A stretch of DNA of 64,000 nt from Pseudobdellovibrio sp. Its GTDB lineage: Bacteria; Bdellovibrionota; Bdellovibrionia; Bdellovibrionales; Bdellovibrionaceae. The position numbers were made by a program, and so were the translations under genes. The stretch is taken from positions 42,747 to 106,746 of the forward strand of contig JAMPXC010000005.1 of NCBI GenBank assembly GCA_023701385.1. Direction: 5' to 3'. The notes under the pieces are model-generated. The model was not told the origin of the DNA. It ran no database searches and worked only from the letters and a program-made list of their open reading frames with translations. Shown one piece after another: positions 54,472 through 56,278 of the stretch. Position 1 is the stretch's first letter, and every line of letters begins with the position of its first letter.

Positions 54472-54813
54472 CTATTTATTTTGGCTTTCAAGGCGGGCAA
54501 TACGGGCTTCAAGATCTTTGATTTTATCTAGTAGGGCTTGTTGGTACTTAATTTCAGCCTGGTCAAGGGCGTGGGTACTTTCTAAAGCAGTATCGGCTTG
54601 GTTGGCGGCCTCGGCTAATTTGGCCATCTGGCTTTCGCGGATTTTATTTAACTGCTGCACTTGCGCTTGCAGGCCGTGAAGCCCTTTTTTCATATTTTCA
54701 ATTTTGGGTGGAAATTCGCCCGTGATGAAACAATAACTAGCCACAAACATCAGCACGGCGAATAAAATAGTGCTGATCAGTTTTTTTAGTATTTCAAGAA
54801 AGAAGTTTTTCAT
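54472..54813 (-). CDS. Small membrane-anchored coiled-coil protein
   Basis: One hydrophobic segment (STILFAVLMFVASYCFITG) followed by coiled-coil-rich C-terminus ending ARIARLESQNK. Confidence 0.65.
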   Translation of the reverse strand: MKNFFLEILKKLISTILFAVLMFVASYCFITGEFPPKIENMKKGLHGLQAQVQQLNKIRESQMAKLAEAANQADTALESTHALDQAEIKYQQALLDKIKDLEARIARLESQNK

Positions 54814-54877
54814 GTCATTATTTAGTCATGTCTTTTACGCGAAAGCTAGACCAGAAATTTAGAGCCTGGAATCACCG
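54734..54877. repeat. 144-bp direct repeat, left copy
   Basis: Identical to 56135-56278 (offset 1401) by direct base comparison; contains the 5' end of the 54813 minus gene plus a truncated 5' end of the GT9 gene. Confidence 0.97.
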
Positions 54878-54911
54878 TTCTGAAAAATATGTTTCGCTGT
54901 ATATAATCTAA
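54828..54911 (+). pseudogene. Truncated 5' duplicate of the GT9 gene
   Basis: ATG TCT TTT ACG CGA AAG CTA GAC... encodes MSFTRKLDQKFRAWNHR identical to the GT9 N-terminus at 56229, then diverges and stops (TAA 54909-54911). Confidence 0.9.
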
Positions 54912-54954
54912 CAATTACAGGTATTTAAGCTGTTTCGAATTGTGTCGACAACTA

Positions 54955-54975
54955 TATATTGTATGGTACAATATA
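54955..54975. promoter_or_regulatory. Palindromic putative operator just upstream of cassette gene 1
   Basis: TATATTGTA-TGG-TACAATATA, perfect 9-bp arms, 3 bp upstream of ATG 54979. Confidence 0.65.
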
Positions 54976-54978
54976 GTC

Positions 54979-55509
54979 ATGAAAGACATAATCGTAGAAT
55001 TTGATAAGTTTTTAATTCAAAATAATTTAAAGTTCGAAGCCGTCATCATTGGCGGTGCAGCTCTAAATATTTTAGATATTACGAACCGTAAAACGAAAGA
55101 CGTAGATTGTCTTGACCCTGAGTTGCCGTCAGAAATCAAAAAAGCTTCAGAAGAATTTGCAAAAAAACGACTTGATCTAGGTTTAGATATAGATTGGTTA
55201 AATAATGGCCCACAAACATTAAAAACTGATCTTCCCAAAGGGTGGAGAATAAGAACTCAGTTGTTGTATCGTGGAAATGCCATAAACTTAGATGTTTTAG
55301 GGCGATCAGATTTGTTAAAATCAAAACTATTTGCTTATTGCGACCGCACAGCGCCCGACTTTGAAGATCTAAAAAGTTTAAAACCAACTGTTCAAGAACT
55401 TAACGAATCTATTGATTGGGTAAAAGATAGAGACGCTCATATAAAATGGCCCGATCACGTTGAGAAAGCATTTACAGTTTTAAAAAAGGCGTTAGGTTAT
55501 GAATCATAA
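54979..55509 (+). CDS. DUF6036/AbiEii-like nucleotidyltransferase (putative toxin component)
   Basis: AVIIGGAALNILDITNRKTKDVDCLDPE (GG...R.T.D.D NTase motif), LDVLGRSDLLKSKLFAYCDR..DFEDLKSL. ATG 54979 preferred over 54940. Confidence 0.75.
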   Translation: MKDIIVEFDKFLIQNNLKFEAVIIGGAALNILDITNRKTKDVDCLDPELPSEIKKASEEFAKKRLDLGLDIDWLNNGPQTLKTDLPKGWRIRTQLLYRGNAINLDVLGRSDLLKSKLFAYCDRTAPDFEDLKSLKPTVQELNESIDWVKDRDAHIKWPDHVEKAFTVLKKALGYES

Positions 55510-56137
55510 TCTAACTCTTGATCAAAAACTGCAATATATAGGCGTTCAATTAGCTCTTCTTAAAAAAAATCCAAAGAGTGAGTGGGTAGATTTAGAAAAC
55601 ACCATACACGAAGCATCTTTAGAAATCGCAAAAGATAGTCGTCTGTTTTCGTTGCTGGCCAGCTGGATATCAGTGCACGGTGACTATGTTATTATAGAAA
55701 AACTAATGAAGCTTCAAAAAAATAATAATTCACCGTGGTTAGTCGCTTTAGCTATTAGTGCATATAACTTAGGGTTTCATCAGTGGGGCCGATTAATAAA
55801 AAAACAAAAATCAGAATTTGCATTAGTTGATTTAGAGTTGGCAAAAAGTTCTATTGCATTAAAAGGCGAAGAAGCAGCTTTTAAAAAGTATGGTTTTTTT
55901 ATACCTAAAGGTACAATTAGAATCAGAGCAAAAGACGTTCGAACCATAGAACAGCTCATTAAAGATAACCCGCAATATAAAAACCGTCTGATGTACGGCG
56001 CCTCGTGGCGATCAGACATAATAACAGCGATTCAATTAGGGATAAAAACACCGTATCAAATAGCCAAAACTCTGGGTTGCTCGTACGAGCCAGCCTTGCG
56101 CATTTTTAAAGAATATCAGCTTGTTATGGGTGAGTAA
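55499..56137 (+). CDS. Partner protein with C-terminal HTH-like segment (putative antitoxin/regulator)
   Basis: Overlaps gene 1 by 11 bp; C-terminal AIQLGIKTPYQIAKTLGCSYEPALRIFKEYQLV resembles a helix-turn-helix. Confidence 0.6.
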   Translation: MNHNLTLDQKLQYIGVQLALLKKNPKSEWVDLENTIHEASLEIAKDSRLFSLLASWISVHGDYVIIEKLMKLQKNNNSPWLVALAISAYNLGFHQWGRLIKKQKSEFALVDLELAKSSIALKGEEAAFKKYGFFIPKGTIRIRAKDVRTIEQLIKDNPQYKNRLMYGASWRSDIITAIQLGIKTPYQIAKTLGCSYEPALRIFKEYQLVMGE

Positions 56138-56278
56138 CTAGCCACAAACATCAGCACGGCGAATAAAATAGTGCTGATCAGTTTTTTTAGTATTTCAAGA
56201 AAGAAGTTTTTCATGTCATTATTTAGTCATGTCTTTTACGCGAAAGCTAGACCAGAAATTTAGAGCCTGGAATCACCG
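56135..56278. repeat. 144-bp direct repeat, right copy
   Basis: Identical to 54734-54877; contains the truncated 5' end of the 54813 minus gene plus the authentic GT9 start. Confidence 0.97.

What the first reader, a model, noticed from the sequence alone, without database searches (positions are those of the whole stretch)
54734..56278. Nucleotidyltransferase/HTH two-gene cassette inserted with a 144-bp perfect target duplication
The sequence taactagccacaaacatcagc...gcctggaatcaccg occurs at 54734-54877 and again, base for base, at 56135-56278. Each copy spans the divergent start region of the flanking genes (54813 minus coiled-coil gene and GT9 gene), so each neighbour keeps one intact copy while a truncated duplicate remains on the far side of the insert. 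Exactly 1257 bp with two overlapping ORFs lie between. No transposase is visible and 144 bp is far longer than ordinary IS target duplications. The geometry matches 'insertion with long target duplication', a mode described for restriction-modification genes. Here the cargo looks like an AbiE/DUF6036-type toxin-antitoxin-like pair, so this may be a self-moving addiction or defence cassette using that route. Perfect repeat identity suggests recent insertion; homologous recombination between repeats would excise it precisely.
Basis: partly seen in the sequence, partly recalled or inferred. Interest (0 to 1): 0.87.

Follow-up and report, generated by a model that had tools for sequence, protein, structure and literature searches.

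The report
Toxin-like gene pair duplicating its target
A bare two-gene cassette resembling a toxin-antitoxin pair has inserted between two bacterial genes, copying the 144 bases it landed in so that both neighbours stayed intact, and related cassettes in distant bacteria carry the same kind of scar, which suggests that such gene pairs spread without any transposase of their own.

Summary
A 144-bp stretch occurs twice, perfectly, and nowhere else in the genome, bracketing 1257 bp that hold only two overlapping genes: a DUF6036 nucleotidyltransferase and an unclassified partner with a helix-turn-helix-like end. The repeat is host DNA: it spans the starts of the two divergent neighbours, and each neighbour keeps one intact copy.

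Of about 105 non-redundant homologous cassettes with usable flanks, 9 are bracketed by 21-164 bp direct repeats, against 4 of 2500 random anchors in the same loci (Fisher p about 1e-10). The repeats are unrelated to each other. Where readable they are ends of local genes (queA/tgt, tolB, tgt, a SecA-type tail). In 8 of 9 the left copy stops 59-101 bp before the first gene. For one homologue the empty site (queA next to tgt) is seen in 18 of 19 relatives. One case lies in a near-complete single-contig genome. One AbiE operon shows the same scar.

Best reading: transposase-less insertion of an addiction-type operon with long, variable target duplication, as described for restriction-modification genes. 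The joining mechanism, toxin-antitoxin function and excision are inferred, not shown.

The parts
54734..54877 (.). Left copy of the 144-bp direct repeat (start of the coiled-coil gene, intergenic gap, displaced first 50 bp of the GT9 gene)
   Evidence: 100% identical to the right copy; only two copies in the genome
54828..54877 (+). Displaced duplicate of the first 50 bp of the GT9 gene
   Evidence: Offset of 1401 bp from the GT9 start at 56229
54878..56134 (+). Insert of 1257 bp: the cassette
   Evidence: Sequence between the two repeat copies
54957..54973 (+). Near-palindrome TATTGTATGGTACAATA just upstream of gene 1, putative operator
   Evidence: Conserved in 8 of 9 close-clade cassettes and found nowhere else in the fetched loci
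54979..55509 (+). Gene 1: DUF6036 nucleotidyltransferase, putative toxin
   Evidence: PF19502 E 8.8e-14; GG, DxD, K, DR signature conserved in 112 homologues
55499..56137 (+). Gene 2: partner protein with HTH-like C-terminus, putative antitoxin and regulator; its stop codon lies in the right repeat copy
   Evidence: Linked to gene 1 in 117 of 128 hits; no family; AlphaFold pLDDT 91
56135..56278 (.). Right copy of the 144-bp direct repeat
56135..56214 (-). Displaced duplicate of the first 80 bp of the coiled-coil gene
   Evidence: Offset of 1401 bp from the gene start at 54813
54472..54813 (-). Left neighbour: 113-aa coiled-coil gene, intact
   Evidence: Orthologue in G013, 73% identical
56229..57344 (+). 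Right neighbour: glycosyltransferase family 9 gene, intact
   Evidence: PF01075 E 1.4e-13; N-terminus inside the repeat conserved in orthologues

Best explanation
A minimal toxin-antitoxin-like operon (DUF6036 nucleotidyltransferase plus HTH-like partner, with its own promoter and operator) was inserted at a gene boundary, and the 144 bp of target were duplicated on either side, so both neighbouring genes survived. The insertion is one instance of a recurrent event in this cassette family: the unit that moves is the bare transcription unit, from about 60-100 bp before the first gene to about the stop codon of the second, with no transposase, no shared end sequences and a duplication of variable length. 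Most likely route (inferred): a DNA fragment carrying the operon is joined into a break with long staggered ends, fill-in of the overhangs makes the duplication, and the addictive or defensive effect of the pair retains it. Shown: duplication, host origin of the repeat, recurrence, cassette boundaries, one empty site. Inferred: the joining chemistry, addiction, and later loss by recombination between the repeats. My confidence is about 0.8 for insertion with target duplication and about 0.45 for the passive joining route.
For: Perfect repeat, two copies only; repeat made of conserved starts of both neighbours; 9 of about 105 homologous cassettes bracketed against 4 of 2500 anchors; left edge within 59-101 bp of gene 1 in 8 of 9; repeats mutually unrelated; repeats are host gene ends in L050, L116, L118, L219; empty queA-tgt site in 18 of 19 relatives; case in a single-contig genome; same architecture at an AbiE operon; no short duplication in the rest.
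Against: About nine tenths of the cassettes show no repeat now. Three of the nine cases (L059, L123, L134) are soft. No empty coil/GT9 site was found. The control was random anchors, not matched operons. No function of the pair was tested.
Confidence: 0.8

Rival explanations
1. Active mobility: the pair, or a factor acting in trans, catalyses insertion with a long stagger, so the cassette is a transposon-like element of a new kind.
For: Recurrence with constant cassette edges; many isolated copies beside different genes; gene 1 has an intact nucleotidyltransferase signature.
Against: No recombinase or nuclease motif recognised; no conserved terminal sequences; an AbiE operon with different proteins shows the same scar.
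Confidence: 0.15
2. One-sided homologous exchange: incoming donor DNA carrying the cassette next to the same gene recombines at that gene end and is joined illegitimately on the other side, leaving two copies of the gene end.
For: Repeats at gene 3' ends of 92-98% identity in L116, L118, L219 could be donor and recipient copies.
Against: Fits poorly where the repeat spans parts of two genes that are both needed, as in the window and L050; does not explain the constant left edge.
Confidence: 0.2
3. Assembly artefact or strain mixture: the repeat or the placement of the cassette is a product of short-read assembly.
For: The window comes from a 96-contig assembly, and 144 bp is close to read length.
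Against: Both junctions read through coherent genes; a homologue in a 4.35-Mb contig shows the same structure; imperfect repeats elsewhere cannot be collapse products.
Confidence: 0.05
4. Integrase-made island or integron cassette with att or attC repeats.
For: Gene 3' ends are classic integration sites. L106 has several dispersed copies of its repeat.
Against: No integrase in the window's 1257-bp insert; repeats of nine cassettes share no core.
Confidence: 0.03

Closest known systems
Insertion with long target duplication of restriction-modification genes (Nobusato et al. 2000, Gene 259:99, cited in PMC3874152 and PMC1643837)
   Same: Addiction-type genes, not linked to a mobile element, flanked by long (order of 100 bp) and variable duplications of target DNA
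   Different: Cargo is a nucleotidyltransferase/HTH-like pair, not restriction-modification; different phyla; original paper not held, so details come from citing papers
AbiE and MenAT nucleotidyltransferase toxin-antitoxin systems (AbiEii/DUF1814)
   Same: Two-gene operon with a GG/DxD nucleotidyltransferase; one AbiE operon (L326) has the same flanking scar
   Different: Gene 1 belongs to DUF6036, not AbiEii; the nucleotidyltransferase gene comes first; the partner has no detectable similarity to AbiEi or MenA families
Direct repeats beside a mycoplasma toxin-antitoxin pair (PMC8562856)
   Same: A toxin-antitoxin pair flanked by direct repeats, read there as scars of recombination
   Different: Different proteins (AAA-ATPase/subtilisin-like protease); the passages read do not analyse where the repeats come from

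Membership tests
Insertion with long target duplication | Insert flanked by direct repeats of the order of 100 bp | tested here: met
   144 bp, 100%
Insertion with long target duplication | Repeat is target DNA, single copy in the empty site | tested here: inconclusive
   Empty queA-tgt adjacency shown for the G027 homologue; for the window only inferred from conserved gene starts
Insertion with long target duplication | Duplication length varies between insertions | tested here: met
   21-164 bp
Insertion with long target duplication | Cargo is a restriction-modification system, as originally described | tested here: not met
   DUF6036 plus unclassified partner
DUF6036 (PF19502) | Score above the Pfam gathering cut-off | tested here: met
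   52.1 bits against 23.6
AbiEii nucleotidyltransferase toxins | Significant match to AbiEii models | tested here: not met
   PADLOC AbiEii E 0.011 only, no Pfam AbiEii hit
Toxin-antitoxin system | Two-gene operon conserved as a unit | tested here: met
   117 of 128 hits
Toxin-antitoxin system | One product toxic, the other neutralising | not testable with these tools
   Needs expression assays
Insertion sequence / DDE transposon | Transposase, terminal inverted repeats, short (2-14 bp) target duplication | tested here: not met
   No transposase ORF, no inverted ends; no excess of short duplications among homologues
Integrase island or integron cassette | Integrase and a common att or attC core | tested here: not met
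   No integrase in the insert; repeats of nine cassettes unrelated. attC models were not run

The most novel reading that the evidence does not exclude
Toxin-antitoxin-like operons (DUF6036/HTH-like pairs, and at least one AbiE operon) form a class of minimal mobile units that move as naked transcription units by a common transposase-independent route. That route duplicates 20-160 bp of target and so lets them enter tightly packed gene boundaries without breaking either gene; the pair itself may take part.
Probability: 0.3. Interest if true: 0.85.

Novelty: new variant of a known kind. Interest (0 to 1): 0.68.

Why it matters
How chromosomal toxin-antitoxin and defence operons reach new sites when no mobile element is attached is an open question. 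Long target duplication was proposed for restriction-modification genes from genome comparisons. Here the same scar recurs, with a control, in a family of nucleotidyltransferase pairs across phyla, with cassette boundaries at the operon edges and an empty site for one homologue. The duplication explains how a 1.2-kb operon can enter between overlapping or divergent genes without harm, and it gives a countable signature that can be surveyed for every toxin-antitoxin and defence family. It also predicts precise excision by recombination between the repeats, which can be tested.

Tried and rejected
Short target-site duplications: exact matches at the expected cassette edges in the other ~100 cassettes are no longer than in controls, so an ordinary transposase is unlikely. 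A common att core: repeats do not match each other. Ku-based end joining as the general route: no Ku hit in G027 or G380. Phage or plasmid carriage: no hit to the nucleotidyltransferase in viral contigs, plasmids or phages. Fold comparison: gene 1 product gives only weak matches, among them MenT1 and an H. pylori nucleotidyltransferase, with an AbiEi antitoxin chain ranked first at TM 0.40, which I do not trust; gene 2 product gives nothing useful, and its one PDB sequence hit (4yxx) has no significant single stretch. Empty site for L219: no second genome of its genus is held. L106 was set aside because its repeat has several dispersed copies; L129 and L108 because their repeats lie far from the cassette edges. 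L278 in the AbiEii control is an overlap artefact of my unit finder.

Full report
CHECK OF THE OBSERVATION. The two 144-bp copies at 54734-54877 and 56135-56278 are identical and are the only copies in the 3.18-Mb, 96-contig genome. Across the window the next longest direct repeat is a 37-bp pair at 73%. The insert is 1257 bp, GC 35.2% against 39.6% for the window, and holds two overlapping ORFs. No inverted repeat joins its ends.

WHAT THE REPEAT IS. It begins about 27 codons into the minus-strand 113-aa coiled-coil gene, crosses the short intergenic gap and ends about 17 codons into the GT9 gene. The coiled-coil start is conserved in G013, which has no cassette there but a different right neighbour. 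The GT9 residues inside the repeat are conserved in orthologues of G012 and G005 (MSFKETDKAIRAWNHRRID and MSFKEIDKIIRAWNHKRID against MSFTRKLDQKFRAWNHRRID). So both halves are old host sequence, and a single-copy ancestor is the simplest reconstruction. The insert leaves both genes whole. The stop codon of the second cassette gene is the TAA of the right copy.

WHAT THE CASSETTE IS. Gene 1 is a DUF6036 nucleotidyltransferase (PF19502, E 8.8e-14) with only a weak AbiEii resemblance (E 0.011). The GG, DxD, lysine and aspartate signature is kept in about 85-100% of 112 homologues, which argues for an active enzyme. Gene 2 has no family in Pfam, PADLOC or PHROGs and at best sub-threshold HTH hits among its relatives. 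Its confident AlphaFold model (pLDDT 91) has no PDB relative. The two genes stay together in 117 of 128 hits, several of the exceptions being cut by contig ends. In the closest clade the near-palindrome TATTGTRTGGTACAATA sits just upstream of gene 1 in 8 of 9 cassettes and nowhere else in the fetched loci. A two-gene autoregulated toxin-antitoxin-like operon is the natural reading, by analogy with AbiE and MenAT. It is inference: no activity was tested.

DISTRIBUTION. Strong homologues occur in 72 of 379 genomes of the phylum, in 15 of 199 genomes of another phylum reached through a Myxococcota locus, and sporadically in records named Planctomycetota, Acidobacteria, Chloroflexi and others. None was found on plasmids, in phages or in viral contigs. 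Cassettes 60-73% identical sit in different genera beside different genes, which fits repeated independent insertion.

THE KEY TEST. For every non-redundant cassette with enough flank I looked for a direct repeat with its left copy within 350 bp before gene 1 and its right copy within 350 bp after gene 2. Eight of 92 have one at 32 bits or more, against 4 of 2500 random anchors of the same geometry in the same loci. A ninth came from the second phylum (L219). Fisher p is about 1e-10. The cases are: window 144 bp 100%; L219 110 bp 95%; L118 95 bp 92%; L116 51 bp 98%; L061 38 bp 92%; L050 21 bp 100%; and the weaker L059 164 bp 89%, L123 32 bp 88%, L134 23 bp 100%. In 8 of 9 the left copy ends 59-101 bp before gene 1 (173 in L123). 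The right copy begins from 3 bp before to 29 bp after the end of gene 2 in six, and 106-184 bp after it in the others. The repeats do not resemble one another, and each has two full copies in its locus. Where readable they are host gene ends: the last 7 codons of queA overlapping the first codons of tgt in L050, the tolB-like 3' end in L116, the tgt 3' end in L219, a degraded SEC-C tail in L118; these gene names are my reading of the translations. The remaining cassettes show no excess of short repeats at their edges.

EMPTY SITE. In G027 (L050) the cassette separates queA from tgt. In 18 of 19 relatives examined the two genes lie directly next to each other, with matched ends 13-128 bp apart in 17 and 367 bp apart in one whose queA match stops early. 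L219 lies in a 4.35-Mb contig of a 4.4-Mb genome, so short-read collapse is not the general explanation.

IS IT SPECIFIC? As a control family I took AbiEii operons of the same phylum. Of 79 units, one artefact aside, one (L326) has a 65-bp, 98% repeat and one (L321) a 17-bp exact repeat. In L326 the repeat is the 3' end of what reads as rimI, next to abiEi-abiEii: the same architecture with different proteins. The route is therefore probably not private to DUF6036 pairs.

MECHANISM. Steps shown: a bare operon inserted at a gene boundary; local target duplicated; variable length; recurrence; no transposase in the insert. Steps inferred: joining of a DNA fragment into a break with long staggered ends and fill-in; retention by addiction or defence; decay of the spare copy with age (identity ranges from 88 to 100%). 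Ku is present in this genome but not detected in G027 or G380, so Ku-dependent joining cannot be the only route. One-sided homologous exchange with a donor carrying the same gene end is the strongest rival for the imperfect cases, but it fits the window and L050 poorly.

COMPARISON WITH THE LITERATURE. A review describes restriction-modification units, not linked to any mobile element, that insert with long and variable target duplications of the order of 100 bp (PMC3874152, citing Nobusato et al. 2000, not held). IS-linked movement of such a system is shown experimentally in PMC3031569. A mycoplasma toxin-antitoxin pair with flanking direct repeats is mentioned in PMC8562856. The library held no paper using the term DUF6036, and the searches made found none on long target duplications of nucleotidyltransferase pairs. 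Hence: a new variant of a known kind.

LIMITS. Most genomes are drafts; the control uses random anchors rather than matched operons; three of the nine cases are soft; function and mobility are untested.

Noticed in passing
L326:1128-1192 and 2888-2952 (G337:C224): An AbiEi-AbiEii operon is bracketed by a 65-bp, 98% direct repeat that is the 3' end of a rimI-like gene: the same scar around a different toxin-antitoxin type.
   Followed up: partly
L105 (G384:C7:563096-565238): Two cassettes lie in tandem, 93% identical over 1246 bp.
   Followed up: no
L106, around the cassette at 5998: The flanking 64-bp repeat belongs to a set of several dispersed copies in the locus, so it is probably a genomic repeat family rather than a target duplication.
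   Followed up: partly
L061 (G017:C22), about 7026-7328: Gene 1 has lost an internal part while gene 2 remains intact, as if the enzyme were decaying first.
   Followed up: no
L118 and L129 flanks: Other nucleotidyltransferase-like ORFs lie next to these cassettes.
   Followed up: no
L126 (CALQIT020000032.1): The record is titled Streptomyces griseus, but the contig equals G033:C32, a genome placed in the window's own family; the title looks wrong.
   Followed up: no
L050 and L219: Two independent insertions lie at the tgt gene, one at its 5' and one at its 3' end; perhaps chance, perhaps a favoured site.
   Followed up: no
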